A stretch of 53,996 nucleotides of DNA from assembly GCA_021805735.1 (NCBI GenBank), contig JAJZEE010000010.1, positions 1 to 53,996 of the forward strand. The letters run 5' to 3'. Position 1 is the stretch's first letter. Each line of letters begins with the position of its first letter. Below are positions 42,267-47,573 of the stretch, piece after piece. The DNA comes from Bacillota bacterium (GTDB lineage Bacteria > Bacillota > Bacilli > Alicyclobacillales > SLC66). Made by a program: the position numbers and the translations under genes. The notes under the pieces are model-generated. The model had not been told where the DNA came from. It worked only from the letters and a program-made list of their open reading frames with translations, and did not search any database.

Positions 42267-42421
42267 GGGGTACCCTCCTGTGGGGCTTACATGGGTTCAG
42301 ATTCGCGAACGCTGGCGCGATAGGATATCGTACGTTCAAAGGCGGTGGTATTGAACCGACAGAAGCCCCCAGATTGGCGCAACCACGGACAAATCCGCAT
42401 ATGTGGATAGGCTGTCATGTC

Positions 42422-42589
42422 TGAGTTTTGCGAAGCAAAATCTCACTGCCACGCTGCACCATCAGGGAATGAAAAAGGCGCCGCAAGGTTTTTCACGGAC
42501 GCAAGGCCCGCTCAGGGAGGAGTCATATATTGCGCCCGTCGCGAGTTTAGCGACAGCGGTGTCTGAGCAGGGGCGCAATATATGACTCC
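42422..42589 (+). repeat. structured intergenic repeat, copy A
   Basis: It begins with the hairpin TGAGTTTTGCGAAGCAAAATCTCA and a second hairpin near TGAAAAA...TTTTTCA. The 19-bp stem GGAGTCATATATTGCGCCC (42519-42537) pairs with 42571-42589. The 33-nt loop GTCGCGAGTT...GTCTGAGCAG is conserved in copy B. No gene is seen in 42267-42651. Confidence 0.75.
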
Positions 42590-42651
42590 GACCGGCACGG
42601 ACCAACGATTTTCCGGGATAGGCTGTAAGATGTCGATCCGAACTCTCCATA

Positions 42652-43272
42652 TCACTCCACTCCCTTTGAACCCTTTCGATAGTCTTGCATCCACCGCCCT
42701 ATCGCCTGGGCATCGGGATCCGCCGACGCGCTGAGTTTTGCTGCCAATCGCTCCTGAACCTCGGCCGACTTGTTTTGGCTGAGTTTTGCTTTGCCTTCCA
42801 CATTCGTGATGTCAATACGAAATCCGACAATCGCCTTCATGAGATTGCCATAAAACGGCTCATCGGCCTGAGCCGGCAACTCGGAATCGGGTTCGTAAAA
42901 GCGAACGATATCCGCCAGCAACGCAGCCAACTCCTGTTCGTTGTCGATCACGGCGCATGTTCCGTATACATGCGCCGCCACGTAGTTCCAGGTTGGCACA
43001 GAGTCTGCTTCCTGGTACCAGACAGGCGAGATGTAGGCGTGAGGTCCGGAAAACACGACCAGCACCTCTTGCCCGTCAAGATCTTGCCACTGGGGATTCG
43101 CTTTTGCCATGTGGGCGAACAGCACGTTGCGCTCGGCGTCATAGAGAAAAGGCAGATGTGTTGCAAAGGGGCGTCCATCGACGCCGCTGATCAACACGCC
43201 GAAACTGTGCGCATGAATGAAGCTCGCCACCTTACCCGGATCGTGCATGTCAAAATATTTGGGTATGTACAC
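42652..43272 (-). CDS. paiB: FMN-binding negative transcriptional regulator (PaiB)
   Basis: The 206-residue product has the PaiB flavin-reductase-like split barrel: MYIPKYFDMHDPGKVASFIH, ATHLPFL, GHMAKANPQW-like AHMAKANPQW, FSGPHAYISPVWY, PTWNYVAAHVYG and the C-terminal GFRIDITNVEGKAKLSQNKS. These are hallmark segments. I start it at GTG (Met-Tyr-Ile-Pro) because AAAGGAG lies 9 nt upstream. In B. subtilis PaiB affects sporulation and protease genes; the role here is inferred only. Confidence 0.93.
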   Translation of the reverse strand: MYIPKYFDMHDPGKVASFIHAHSFGVLISGVDGRPFATHLPFLYDAERNVLFAHMAKANPQWQDLDGQEVLVVFSGPHAYISPVWYQEADSVPTWNYVAAHVYGTCAVIDNEQELAALLADIVRFYEPDSELPAQADEPFYGNLMKAIVGFRIDITNVEGKAKLSQNKSAEVQERLAAKLSASADPDAQAIGRWMQDYRKGSKGVE

Positions 43273-43374
43273 GCAGACCATCTCCTTTTGCTATCGTCAT
43301 CATGCTCAGATCGCCATGACATGTGGTATCAACAGTTGCCTCACTGGCTGATCGCGTGTAGGCACTCTGTATGC

Positions 43375-45825
43375 CTAACGCATTCCTGCTGCAATCGCAA
43401 ACTTGTGGATCGAGTAACCCGATTCTCCGACTTCAATGTCAGACAGAACCACTCGCGTGATCTCATAAACCTCTTCCGCCAGGCGGGACAATCGTTGCAG
43501 CAGTTCCTCCAGATCTGTGCGTACGGAGGATGGCAACGCGTCCAGGTCCGCGCCCAGAACACTGCTCACCATATCATTGCAGTCACGATCCGTTAGCGGA
43601 GTGATGCTGATCGCCTGTGACTCCGAAACCGAGAACAGCTTCTCAGTGTCCGGCCTCTCACCTCGGTAACCCGTCAAGCCAACAACCATGCCAAACAGCG
43701 GATCACATTCAACTGCGACTGCAACCCGCAGGGCAGTTTTCGCAGTCACCCGCGATCGCGGTGGATCCACCCGTATTCCGACAGCGTCCAGAATCTCGGC
43801 AGCCACATCGGCAGGCGCCCAACCAGATCCGGCCGTCAGAGCCTCTCTCGCCGCGGCTCTTGCCTGATCACAATCGACATTCCATAAGTCGGGAACATGC
43901 CCGCGGGGATTGCGGCAGTATTCAGCGTACCCGATCACCTTCGCAAGAGCCCGCACAGCCTGTTCCGGAAACGGGTACACGGGAACGCGCCGCTCCCCCG
44001 CATCGATAAAACTGACAAAATCATCACCGGTGCTCAGGTAGTTGGCCACCACCGGTTTTACCGCAGGGGCCGGGTTTGGATGTTCCTCAATGCCCGTATG
44101 TTCCCCAGTCTCGTGCGCGAGCACGCCAACCTCCCGAAGAGCCTGCGCAATCGCGCGCGAAATCGCTTTTTCCGTGGACAACTCAATCGGCATGAAAATG
44201 ACCATCACAGCGTCGACGCTGGGATCGCGCAACAGGTCGGCGAGAACCTTGCGATAGTCGTTTGCCAATGCTGCGAAACCCAAATCGATCGGAGGCCGTG
44301 CGAGCCGCAGCCCTTCCTTCAACAACGCGTCGACAGTCATCACGGCGCCGCCGGCAGTATTGGTCACAATCGCGACTCGCCGCCCTTTCGGCAGCGATCC
44401 CACCGCAAGAAGCGCCGTCACGTCAAACAGCTCATGCAGAGTGTCCACGCGAATGATGCCCGTCCGGCGAAACAACTCGTCTACCACATGATCGCTGGCG
44501 GGCAGAGCCGTCATTCGCGCTTCCGAGACGGTGGCGCCAAGCGCCGAACGAGCGCTTTTCACCGCGACAATCGGTTTGTGGCGCGTGATGCGTCGCGCAA
44601 TACGCGAGAACTTGCGAGGGTTGCCGAACGATTCGAGGTAAAGCAAAATCATCCCGGTGTCAGGATCATCCTCCCAGTATTGCAGCAAGTCATTGCCTGA
44701 AACATCGGCCTTGTTGCCCATACTGGCAAAACTGGAGACACCCAATCCGATGCGACTGGCATATTCGAGAATCGTAATGCCAAGCGCGCCCGACTGACTG
44801 GCAATGGCGATATTGCCCATGAGGGGCAAGTGGCGAGCAAAGCTCGCGTTCAATCGCATATCCGAAGCCGCATTGGCCAGACCCATGCAATTTGGACCGA
44901 TCAATCGGCAACCCCCGCCGCGCAATTGATGAGTAATCTCCTGTTCTGACAGGGCTCCCTCCCTGTCGCGTTCGGCGAATCCAACCGATGTAATCACGAC
45001 GGCGCGCACAGCGGCCTGCACGCAATCCTTCACCACGTTTGGCGCTTCCTCAGCAGGAACGACAACGACCGCCAGATCGACCTGTTCTGGAATGTCAGAC
45101 ACACTTTTATAGGCTTGCACCGCAGCCACGGACTGCGCGTACCGATGCACGTGGTAGACGGTGCCGCAAAATCCGCCGTCCAGTATATGACGCAACACCA
45201 CATGCCCTACGCCCTTGGGATCGCGAGACGCGCCCACCACCGCGACGGTTCGAGGGCGAAAGAAGGGAACGAGGGACGCTGCGGTTGCCAGTTTTTCGCG
45301 TGTGTCCTGGAGTGCGCGATTGCGCTCCGTCTGCGCCAGTGGAAGCGTCATATGGATCACCTCCGACCGTTGCACACTCTCGAGTTCAAACCCGCTGGAC
45401 TTGAAGACCTCAATCATCCGGTGGTTGCCTGTCAGGACGTCAGCGTCAAAATGTTTAAACCCATAACGCCATGCAATCTCGGCCAAATGCTCTAAAAGCA
45501 GGGTGCCAATGCCTTTGCCTTGCATGCGATCATCGACCAAAAACGCCACTTCCGCACGTTCTTCATCCACTCGGTTGTACGTTCCCATGCCAACCGCGTG
45601 ATCGCCCGCCATACATAACAGAGTTCGATTATTTTCATCGTTGTTCTTTAACAGATTGTCAATAAAAACGTCGCTTACTTCCCGGACCGCCTGAAAAAAT
45701 CGATAGTAAAGACTCTCAGCGGAAACGTGGCCGAACAGCTCCTTGATGATCGATCTGTCCTCCTGGTCGTTTCGGAGTTCCCGAAATTCCGCCACCCTAC
45801 CGTCGCGAAGAATTATTCGTTCCAT
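43375..45825 (-). CDS. GNAT acetyltransferase fused to NDP-forming acyl-CoA synthetase
   Basis: Residues 1-165 are a GNAT domain with the acetyl-CoA loop DRMQGKGIGTLL. A CoA-binding domain (TVAVVGASRDPKGVGHVVLR) and a succinyl-CoA-synthetase-like ligase region (GPNCMGLAN, ASQSGALGITILEY) follow. The ATP-grasp part is short: the usual lysine-bearing GYPVVLK and HKSDVGGV segments are not seen, only VECDPLFGMVVGL. The domain order is opposite to enterobacterial Pat. It may be a protein acetyltransferase with an acyl-CoA-sensing part. The ATG lies 7 nt after GGAGG. Confidence 0.87.
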   Translation of the reverse strand: MERIILRDGRVAEFRELRNDQEDRSIIKELFGHVSAESLYYRFFQAVREVSDVFIDNLLKNNDENNRTLLCMAGDHAVGMGTYNRVDEERAEVAFLVDDRMQGKGIGTLLLEHLAEIAWRYGFKHFDADVLTGNHRMIEVFKSSGFELESVQRSEVIHMTLPLAQTERNRALQDTREKLATAASLVPFFRPRTVAVVGASRDPKGVGHVVLRHILDGGFCGTVYHVHRYAQSVAAVQAYKSVSDIPEQVDLAVVVVPAEEAPNVVKDCVQAAVRAVVITSVGFAERDREGALSEQEITHQLRGGGCRLIGPNCMGLANAASDMRLNASFARHLPLMGNIAIASQSGALGITILEYASRIGLGVSSFASMGNKADVSGNDLLQYWEDDPDTGMILLYLESFGNPRKFSRIARRITRHKPIVAVKSARSALGATVSEARMTALPASDHVVDELFRRTGIIRVDTLHELFDVTALLAVGSLPKGRRVAIVTNTAGGAVMTVDALLKEGLRLARPPIDLGFAALANDYRKVLADLLRDPSVDAVMVIFMPIELSTEKAISRAIAQALREVGVLAHETGEHTGIEEHPNPAPAVKPVVANYLSTGDDFVSFIDAGERRVPVYPFPEQAVRALAKVIGYAEYCRNPRGHVPDLWNVDCDQARAAAREALTAGSGWAPADVAAEILDAVGIRVDPPRSRVTAKTALRVAVAVECDPLFGMVVGLTGYRGERPDTEKLFSVSESQAISITPLTDRDCNDMVSSVLGADLDALPSSVRTDLEELLQRLSRLAEEVYEITRVVLSDIEVGESGYSIHKFAIAAGMR

Positions 45826-45901
45826 GCACACTCCTCCCTACAATGAACCATACCCGCACTGATGGCGCCCGAGCCGCCAAAGCAAGTGTCTCCAGGCATG
45901 T

Positions 45902-47173
45902 TCAATACCATGGCCACATCTCCTTTGCCGTTCTCTCCAGAGAGTTCCGGTCTTCCGGGTGAGCAATGCCGATCAACTGGCGCACACGCTCTTCAAGGGT
46001 GCGACCGTGCAGTTCGGCTGTTCCATACTCCGTGACGACATATTGAACATGATTCCGCGTCGTCGTGATCCCCGCGCCAGGCTTCAGAGACGCCACGATG
46101 CGCGGTTGGTTCGAGCCTGTTCGCGACGGCAATGCAATGATCGACTTGCCTTCCACCGCCAGACTGGCTCCACGGACGAAATCCATTTGCCCGCCGACGC
46201 CTGAAACGATCCGTGGCCCGATCGACTCGGCGACGACCTGACCAGTCAGATCCACCTCGATGGCAGAGTTCACCGAAATCATGCGCGGGTTGCAACGGAT
46301 GACCGCAGTGTTGTTCGTATAGTCAACGGCCCGCATTGATACAGCCGGGTTGTCATCGATGAAGTCAAACAGCGACTGAGAGCCCATCGCAAAGGTGGCT
46401 ACGATGTGACCCGGATCGGTCTTCTTATGAATGCCGGTGATGACTCCCTGCTCTGCCAGAACCATTACGCCGTCGGAAATCATCTCACTGTGCACACCGA
46501 GGTCTTTGTGGCCCGTCAGTTGGTTCAAAACGGCGTTTGGAATGCGTCCAATGCCCAACTGCAGCGTCGCATAGTCGGGAATCAACTCGGCCACATGGCG
46601 ACCAATCGCATCTGTAACGGGATTGCTGGGGGGTGAGATGGAACAGTCCAGAGGCTCATCCCAGAGGACGCCATAGGTGATTGAACTCTGGTTGATCAGC
46701 GCGTTTCCTAGAGCGCGGGGAACATGTCGATTGACTTGCGCAATCACGATATCAGCCTGGGCGATCGCCGCCAAAGTCGCTTCCAAAGTGGGCCCGAGGC
46801 TGACAAACCCATGCCGGTCCGGTGGGCTCACGTTGATCAAAACCACGATCGGCCGAAACTGCGGTTGTTGCAGGAGCCACGGCACTTCCGACAGAAACAG
46901 CGGGGCATAGGACGCCCGGCCGTCGTTGACCGCTTCTCTCAAATTAGCGCCCACAAAAAGTGAAATGTCACGCAGACGGTTGTCAAGTGTTGGCGTAATC
47001 CAGGGAGTGGGGCCTTCGAGATGCAGATGATACAGTTTCACGCCTTCAAGCTGGTGACACCGTTCGGTGAGCCCAGCCAGTAATCGATGAGGCGTAGAGG
47101 CCATTCCTTGCGCATATATCCGACTTTCGGAACCAACGGCCTCCATTGCTTCCTCCAATTCTACGATTCTCAT
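45902..47173 (-). CDS. acetyl-CoA hydrolase/transferase (CoA-transferase family)
   Basis: The 423-residue product belongs to the 4-hydroxybutyrate CoA-transferase/acetyl-CoA hydrolase family. The active-site glutamate is in LGVHSEMISDGVMVL. The glycine-rich GVGGQMDFVRGA and the C-terminal VVTEYGTAELHGRTLEERVR are conserved. It probably interconverts acyl-CoA and acids. It lies 76 bp before the GNAT/acyl-CoA synthetase on the same strand, so acetate/acetyl-CoA handling is a shared theme. GGGAGGATGTCGT precedes the ATG. Confidence 0.92.
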   Translation of the reverse strand: MRIVELEEAMEAVGSESRIYAQGMASTPHRLLAGLTERCHQLEGVKLYHLHLEGPTPWITPTLDNRLRDISLFVGANLREAVNDGRASYAPLFLSEVPWLLQQPQFRPIVVLINVSPPDRHGFVSLGPTLEATLAAIAQADIVIAQVNRHVPRALGNALINQSSITYGVLWDEPLDCSISPPSNPVTDAIGRHVAELIPDYATLQLGIGRIPNAVLNQLTGHKDLGVHSEMISDGVMVLAEQGVITGIHKKTDPGHIVATFAMGSQSLFDFIDDNPAVSMRAVDYTNNTAVIRCNPRMISVNSAIEVDLTGQVVAESIGPRIVSGVGGQMDFVRGASLAVEGKSIIALPSRTGSNQPRIVASLKPGAGITTTRNHVQYVVTEYGTAELHGRTLEERVRQLIGIAHPEDRNSLERTAKEMWPWY

Positions 47174-47433
47174 ACGACATCCTCCCTTTTATGATGCATC
47201 GTTCCTATACCGAGTCGCGCAGCGCATTCATTGGCCCTCTCATGTGAGATCACTCCTTCGAATAATCTCACTTTATTCCTCGAATGCCAAGAGCCTCGTT
47301 GTCCAAACAGGCGTGGTGGGCTGGGCAGAGAGTCTACTTGAATAATTGTGAAATAATTCACAAACAAAATGCCGATAATGCCTTTACTTATGCCAAGAAT
47401 GGGCTGGATGTCAGCCAGTGCGCCTGCCCAGCC

Positions 47434-47573
47434 GGATTCATATGCTGTGCCCCTGCTCAGACACGGCTGCGCCGAACTCGCGACGGGCACAGCATATGAA
47501 TCCTGACGAGTGGTTTTTCTATCCCGGTTGTTAGTGGCGCGCAAGCGGTGAGATTTTTCTTCGCAAAACTCAC
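47434..47573 (-). repeat. structured intergenic repeat, copy B
   Basis: Opposite in orientation to copy A. The 19-bp arms GGATTCATATGCTGTGCCC (47434-47452) and 47485-47503 are perfectly paired around a 32-nt loop nearly identical to that of copy A. The GTGAGTTTTGCGAAG...ATCTCAC hairpin is at 47548-47573. Four stem positions differ from copy A and all are compensated. No gene is seen in 47174-47583 otherwise. Confidence 0.78.

What the first reader, a model, noticed from the sequence alone, without database searches (positions are those of the whole stretch)
42422..47573. Intergenic repeat with a conserved loop and a compensated 19-bp stem
Copies A (42422-42589) and B (47434-47573) share a 32-33-nt loop (GTCGCGAGTT...GTCTGAGCAG) and a preceding TGAGTTTTGCGAAG hairpin. 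The stems GGAGTCATATATTGCGCCC and GGATTCATATGCTGTGCCC differ at four positions, and the opposite arms carry matching changes, so both stay perfectly paired. Maintained pairing plus a conserved loop suggests a structured RNA or a hairpin-recognised mobile repeat.
Basis: seen in the sequence. Interest (0 to 1): 0.82.

Follow-up and report, generated by a model that had tools for sequence, protein, structure and literature searches.

The report
Sense-oriented mosaic hairpin repeats between genes
The two hairpins belong to a family of well over a hundred near-perfect hairpin repeats scattered between genes of a Bacillota genome, almost always facing the same way as the neighbouring genes, which suggests they act (or are tolerated) as RNA at the ends of genes; they are a new, unusual cousin of the known REP/BIME repeats.

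Summary
Copies A and B belong to a large dispersed family. An exact loop pattern alone gives 113 copies in this genome, 113 and 60 in two congeners, 18 and 4 in two other genera, and about none in relatives or reversed controls. Each copy has a 19-27 bp near-perfect stem and a conserved internal loop (GTCGCGAGTT...TGTYTGAGCAG) around an apical mini-helix. Across 22 diverse copies all 15 tested stem pairs change on both sides.

A and B themselves are two subfamilies (I and II), so their four 'compensated' differences are not four independent events. Between this genome and a 94-95% identical relative, hairpin types are swapped as whole cassettes at many shared sites.

Copies are intergenic (183/187 and 71/71), favour co-directional and convergent regions, and follow gene direction (50 sense, 3 antisense) rather than replication direction. 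They are units of a BIME-like mosaic. No linked transposase, Rfam match, phage/plasmid match or U-tract was found.

Best reading: a REP/BIME-like mosaic repeat, spread and homogenised by recombination, whose long hairpin acts or is tolerated on the transcribed strand at gene 3' ends. Function is inferred, not shown.

The parts
42404..42419 (+). left boundary motif of the unit of copy A (degenerate GGGATAGACTTTCATG)
   Evidence: motif scan, up to 3 mismatches
42422..42445 (+). copy A, first hairpin H1 TGAGTTTTGCGAAGCAAAATCTCA
   Evidence: sequence; 20 of 23 H1 copies in the sampled stretches have a long hairpin less than 170 nt downstream
42519..42537 (+). copy A, 5' arm of the long stem (subfamily I)
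42538..42570 (+). copy A, conserved loop GTCGCGAGTT...GTCTGAGCAG
42571..42589 (+). copy A, 3' arm of the long stem
42613..42621 (+). right boundary motif CCGGGATAG of copy A
   Evidence: sequence; consensus downstream of subfamilies
47549..47572 (-). copy B, H1 TGAGTTTTGCGAAGAAAAATCTCA (one change weakens it)
   Evidence: sequence
47516..47536 (-). copy B, middle motif of the CACCAACAACCGGGAAGAAAA class, leading into the long hairpin
   Evidence: motif scan, up to 4 mismatches
47485..47503 (-). copy B, 5' arm of the long stem (subfamily II)
47453..47484 (-). copy B, conserved loop
47434..47452 (-). copy B, 3' arm of the long stem; the orthologous copy in JA1.bin52 (L083) has A-T to C-G on both arms at pair 13

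Best explanation
The finding is two copies of a dispersed palindromic repeat of the REP/BIME kind. Each unit is a frame (GGGATAGAC...GATTTTCCGGGATAG) holding a small first hairpin and a second hairpin. In the members studied here the second hairpin is a 19-27 bp near-perfect stem closed by a conserved internal loop and apical mini-helix. Units lie between genes, mostly downstream of a gene, and face the direction of transcription, so the conserved strand would be the one read into mRNA. SHOWN: structure, copy number, intergenic position, orientation bias, cassette swapping, unit gain and loss. INFERRED: on the transcript the long hairpin acts at the 3' end or between cistrons, most likely by blocking 3'-5' exonucleases or by RNase III-type processing, with the loop recognised by an unknown protein. 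Copies spread within the genome by a trans-acting or now lost enzyme. They are homogenised by ectopic recombination, which replaces whole hairpins, so arms change together. Template switching between arms may add perfect-palindrome extensions.
For: Copy number and specificity: 113/113/60/18/4 copies in five genomes, about 0 in controls. Structure: 94% of cells paired vs 73% in shuffles and 24-39% with slid partners; 15/15 long-stem pairs change on both sides. Conserved loop with different stems in other genera. Intergenic: 183/187 and 71/71. Orientation: 50 sense vs 3 antisense at co-directional sites; 40 regions sense only, 2 antisense only, 1 mixed. At convergent/divergent sites no relation to the local majority strand (6:8) or GC skew (6:8), so replication direction does not explain it. 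In the earlier smaller loci the same ratio was 90:17. Occupied regions: 18% co-directional, 22% convergent, 8% divergent, the pattern published for REPs (PMC3733652). Cassette swaps at syntenic sites and tandem unit gains bounded by GGGATAG. Mismatches lean to G.T over A.C, 102:42 by count but only 58:39 by distinct event, a weak hint that the sense strand folds.
Against: No expression data; transcription of the hairpin is inferred from orientation alone. Wobble asymmetry is not significant by distinct events (p=0.07), and G.T is also tolerated in single-stranded DNA. No protein partner or mobilising enzyme found. In the earlier small loci, convergent/divergent sites did follow GC skew 19:7, a hint of replication bias that the larger stretches did not repeat. 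Sense bias could not be tested in G005/G010 (too little flank). Window copy A is itself one of the antisense exceptions. Gene calls are from my own codon model, not a standard annotator.
Confidence: 0.55

Rival explanations
1. Selfish single-strand DNA hairpin element: copies are moved in trans by an HUH (Y1/RAYT-like) transposase that recognises the folded loop as DNA, as in REPINs and IS200/IS605-derived repeats. The sense bias is only purifying selection against antisense copies.
For: Copy number, patchy distribution (present in G005, absent or nearly so in two congeners G012/G016), tandem units, conserved loop with changing stems. Y1 transposases exist in the genome (8 matches).
Against: Y1 genes occur in genomes with and without the repeat. 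The eight own loci show no flanking hairpin except one loop about 1 kb away in L151. No recurring ORF family next to hairpins. Orientation follows genes, not replication, unlike lagging-strand-targeted elements.
Confidence: 0.25
2. Mutational palindrome without function: arms are kept identical only by template switching and gene conversion; the loop is conserved because copies are young and homogenised.
For: Cassette swaps and a lineage-wide A-T to C-G change at pair 13 in five loci. Stems that extend into the flank, e.g. 30 bp in L032 and 25 bp in L015. Template switching is known to create and maintain hairpins (PMC8794818, listed; abstract start only).
Against: Loop ends conserved across genera while stems differ completely. 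Sense orientation 50:3. Depletion from divergent regions.
Confidence: 0.12
3. Transcription terminators: the units are dispersed intrinsic terminators, placed 3' of genes in sense.
For: 3' location and sense orientation. Small units carry GAAAAATACGCCTGCGGCGATTTTTC, a short GC hairpin followed by T5.
Against: The long hairpin is not followed by a T-run of 5 or more within 18 nt in any of 169 copies. The terminator scan of this region finds no clear excess over shuffles (7 vs 5.4).
Confidence: 0.08

Closest known systems
REP / BIME repeats (bacterial interspersed mosaic elements)
   Same: High-copy palindromic units, intergenic, mosaic with other motifs, mostly between co-directional or convergent genes, probably transcribed (PMC3733652; PMC2817692 abstract).
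   Different: Stem 19-27 bp and near perfect with a 30-40 nt structured loop, against 20-40 bp whole repeats. Nearby copies are head to tail in the same orientation, not alternating. Strong sense orientation. No GTAG tag.
CGTC-tagged REPs
   Same: No dedicated transposase (PMC3733652). Subfamily II happens to carry CGTCA just before the stem.
   Different: CGTC REPs have 8-9 bp stems and 4-5 nt loops and are reported from five phyla that do not include Firmicutes (PMC3733652). The tag is absent from subfamilies I, III and IV.
REPINs with RAYT transposase
   Same: A population of hairpins inside one genome, patchy across relatives.
   Different: No RAYT linked here; hairpin arms are not themselves REP palindromes.
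IS200/IS605-derived miniature elements
   Same: Hairpins possibly recognised as structure; Y1 genes present in the genome.
   Different: No Y1 gene flanked by the hairpins; orientation follows transcription, not replication.

Membership tests
REP/RAYT (REPIN) | RAYT (Y1-type) gene flanked by the repeat | tested here: not met
REP, GTAG superfamily | GTAG tag at one end of the palindrome | tested here: not met
   consensus flanks of four subfamilies
REP, CGTC superfamily | CGTC tag, 8-9 bp stem, 4-5 nt loop | tested here: not met
   tag only in subfamily II; stem 19-27 bp, loop 30-40 nt
BIME | mosaic clusters of palindromic units and other motifs in intergenic DNA | tested here: met
   tandem mixed subfamilies and modules
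BIME | units in alternating orientation | tested here: not met
   neighbouring copies in L013, L018, L038, L049, L051, L059 share one orientation
IS200/IS605-derived repeat | an autonomous Y1-bearing element with the same hairpin at its ends | tested here: not met
   on L147-L154; only one loop, about 1 kb from the Y1 fragment, in L151
Intrinsic terminator | hairpin followed directly by a U-tract | tested here: not met
   0 of 169 long hairpins
Described Rfam RNA family | match above gathering score | tested here: not met
   on the window; on five loci found only T-box leaders and a sub-threshold L20 leader match
Transcribed structured RNA | expression and stable RNA fold in the cell | not testable with these tools
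   only orientation and covariation

The most novel reading that the evidence does not exclude
A mobile 3'-UTR regulatory cassette: the conserved loop (GCGAGUU / UGUYUGAGC around a mini-helix) is a binding site of a dedicated RNA-binding or RNA-processing protein, and genes exchange hairpin variants in place by recombination, so that the 3' ends of well over a hundred genes are controlled by interchangeable hairpins.
Probability: 0.2. Interest if true: 0.75.

Novelty: new variant of a known kind. Interest (0 to 1): 0.5.

Why it matters
REP/BIME repeats have been argued about for decades: junk, selfish DNA or RNA signals. This family, apparently not described before (literature and Rfam checks found nothing, but both were limited), gives unusually clean material. 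Long perfect hairpins have a conserved loop, a 50:3 sense orientation independent of replication direction, and a close relative in which hairpins at the same site have been swapped. That makes the RNA-signal hypothesis and the role of gene conversion versus compensatory mutation in keeping palindromes perfect directly testable.

Tried and rejected
Rfam gave nothing for the hairpin. Phages, plasmids and viral contigs: no match. Y1/RAYT link: not found. Recurrent neighbour ORFs: only ordinary paralogues such as transporters and dehydrogenases. Replication-strand orientation was taken seriously after small loci gave GC-skew concordance 19:7, then rejected with 20-kb stretches. Terminator reading rejected for the long hairpin. 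A kink-turn reading of the GCGAG/UGAGC flanks was considered and dropped because the strand next to the apical helix has several unpaired bases (inspection only). In one search, three 'different type' pairs (L035, L053, L056) are offset artefacts of an extended stem, and several others are in tandem clusters; about nine swaps are clean. Clean empty sites with target duplications were not found: differences are mostly unit gain/loss between CCGGGATAG repeats or whole-hairpin swaps.

Full report
OBSERVATION. The two copies are as described: perfect 19-bp stems that differ at four positions, 33- and 32-nt loops with the same ends, and the H1 hairpin upstream. Copy B and its H1 are on the - strand. 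The window is contig C116 of a 3.76-Mb draft in 170 contigs. The nearest named records with the loop are two MAGs labelled only 'Bacillota bacterium', JA1.bin52 and DX2.bin20.

FAMILY. An exact loop pattern gives 113 copies here, 113 and 60 in the two congeners, 18 in G010, 4 in G005, 0 or 1 in three relatives, and 0-1 for the reversed pattern. A covariance model (R1) found no further genome among 399 of the class and 398 of the phylum; those runs use strict filters, and the first listed hits only in the own genome, G001 and G005. Distribution is therefore narrow (one family) and patchy: G012 and G016, of the same genus as G005, lack it or nearly so.

STRUCTURE. Loop-selected hairpins (not selected by stem sequence) number 187 in the first set. 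Subfamilies: I GGAGTCATATATTGCGCCC; II GGATTCATATGCTGTGCCC; III GGAATCGTATGCTGTGCC; IV/V with a longer stem (GGACGGATCATGCATTGCACTGC) and a longer apical helix. G005 and G010 carry quite different stems around the same loop ends. In a 22-row alignment all 15 counted long-stem pairs change on both sides, 94% of cells are paired (shuffles 73%, slid controls 24-39%), and the apical mini-helix shows two pairs with changes on both sides. The invariant loop parts GCGAG and TGAGC could form tandem G.A pairs (inference). The structure was partly derived from these sequences, so the slid controls lean in its favour.

UNITS. The long hairpin sits in a frame GGGATAGACTTTCATG - small hairpin (H1 or a short one) - CACCATCAG/CAACAACCGGGA - GAAAA - second hairpin - GATTTTCCGGGATAG. 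Smaller units with a short second hairpin (GAAAATACGCCTGCGGCGATTTTC) exist without the long one in this genome and in G031 of another family. Own/JA1 differences are often exactly one unit between GGGATAG boundaries (L016/L085, L025/L122, L053/L104, L035/L079, L028/L086). This is a mosaic like BIMEs, but neighbouring copies share one orientation.

HOW THE PAIRING IS KEPT. Of 36 syntenic hairpin pairs between this genome and the related MAG loci (mostly JA1.bin52, about 94-95% identical), 18 scored as different type; after removing offset artefacts and tandem clusters about nine are clean swaps, most clearly L032/L072 and L045/L146, where the flanks stay orthologous and only the hairpin changes. 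Among pairs of the same type there were 17 both-side changes, 12 one-sided changes involving G.T and 1 other; window B versus L083 is A-T to C-G on both arms, and the same change at pair 13 recurs in four other loci. This is concerted evolution by cassette replacement, plus some process that makes new perfect stems. Stems extended into the flank, 30 bp in L032 and 25 bp in L015, fit template switching between arms. Chimeric, partly mismatched hairpins (L043, L055, L143) are rare. So the A/B difference alone is not evidence for four compensations, but the family as a whole is strongly covarying.

POSITION AND ORIENTATION. With a codon model trained on long ORFs, 183/187 hairpins are intergenic. 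On 40 stretches of up to 20 kb plus the window, none of 71 overlaps a gene; at co-directional sites 50 are sense and 3 antisense; per region 40 sense, 2 antisense, 1 mixed. Orientation is explained by flanking genes; adding majority strand or GC skew does not improve the fit materially, and convergent/divergent sites show no relation to either (6:8). Occupancy: 18% co-directional, 22% convergent, 8% divergent regions. Small units without the long hairpin show the same tendency (12:2 and 7:2; the left motif is a noisy probe, 11 control hits). Window B is sense between an acetyl-CoA hydrolase/transferase and a TusA gene; window A is antisense between an FMN_bind_2 gene and an aspartyl protease gene.

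MECHANISM. The hairpin is not an intrinsic terminator by sequence (0/169). A sense-oriented long RNA hairpin at gene 3' ends would be expected to block exonucleases or be cut by RNase III (general knowledge of bacterial 3' hairpins, mine); which of these holds here is inference. Wobble mismatches lean to the sense strand but not decisively (102:42 by count, 58:39 by distinct event).

COMPARISON. REPs are predominantly between unidirectional and convergent genes and are thought to be transcribed (PMC3733652). This family works like a REP/BIME but fails the tags, the stem size, the alternating orientation and the transposase link, so I do not file it as a REP. It is a new variant of dispersed palindromic repeats.

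LIMITS. Draft genomes, some from metagenomes; own-genome loci were first chosen by similarity to A and B (subfamilies I and II over-represented); the gene caller is home-made; related copies are not independent.

Noticed in passing
window 42411-43370: JA1.bin52 (L083) lacks this 960-bp stretch, which holds copy A and the FMN_bind_2 gene; the break lies right after GTGGATAG, i.e. at the unit's left boundary motif.
   Followed up: partly
L174 850-1900 (G031, another family of the order): Two copies of the small unit with H1 but without the long hairpin.
   Followed up: partly
L021 vs L139, L057 vs L075: 99.96% identity over 4.7 kb and 99.1% over 1.4 kb between genomes that are otherwise about 94-95% identical: recent exchange or contamination.
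   Followed up: no
L149: IS200-type Y1 transposase and a reverse transcriptase of the group II intron kind side by side at a contig end.
   Followed up: no
L028 3714-3732 / L086 5667-5745: Short tandem repeat GCTCCTCACGCTGCTT expanded in JA1 relative to this genome.
   Followed up: no
L061 1996-2139: 142-bp stretch with an internal inverted repeat (CATATAGCGTTTGAGG...) absent from JA1, flanked by a short CCTAG-like repeat; a different candidate insertion.
   Followed up: no
L029 7513-7823 and L017 6500-6748: T-box leaders, one above and one below the gathering score.
   Followed up: no
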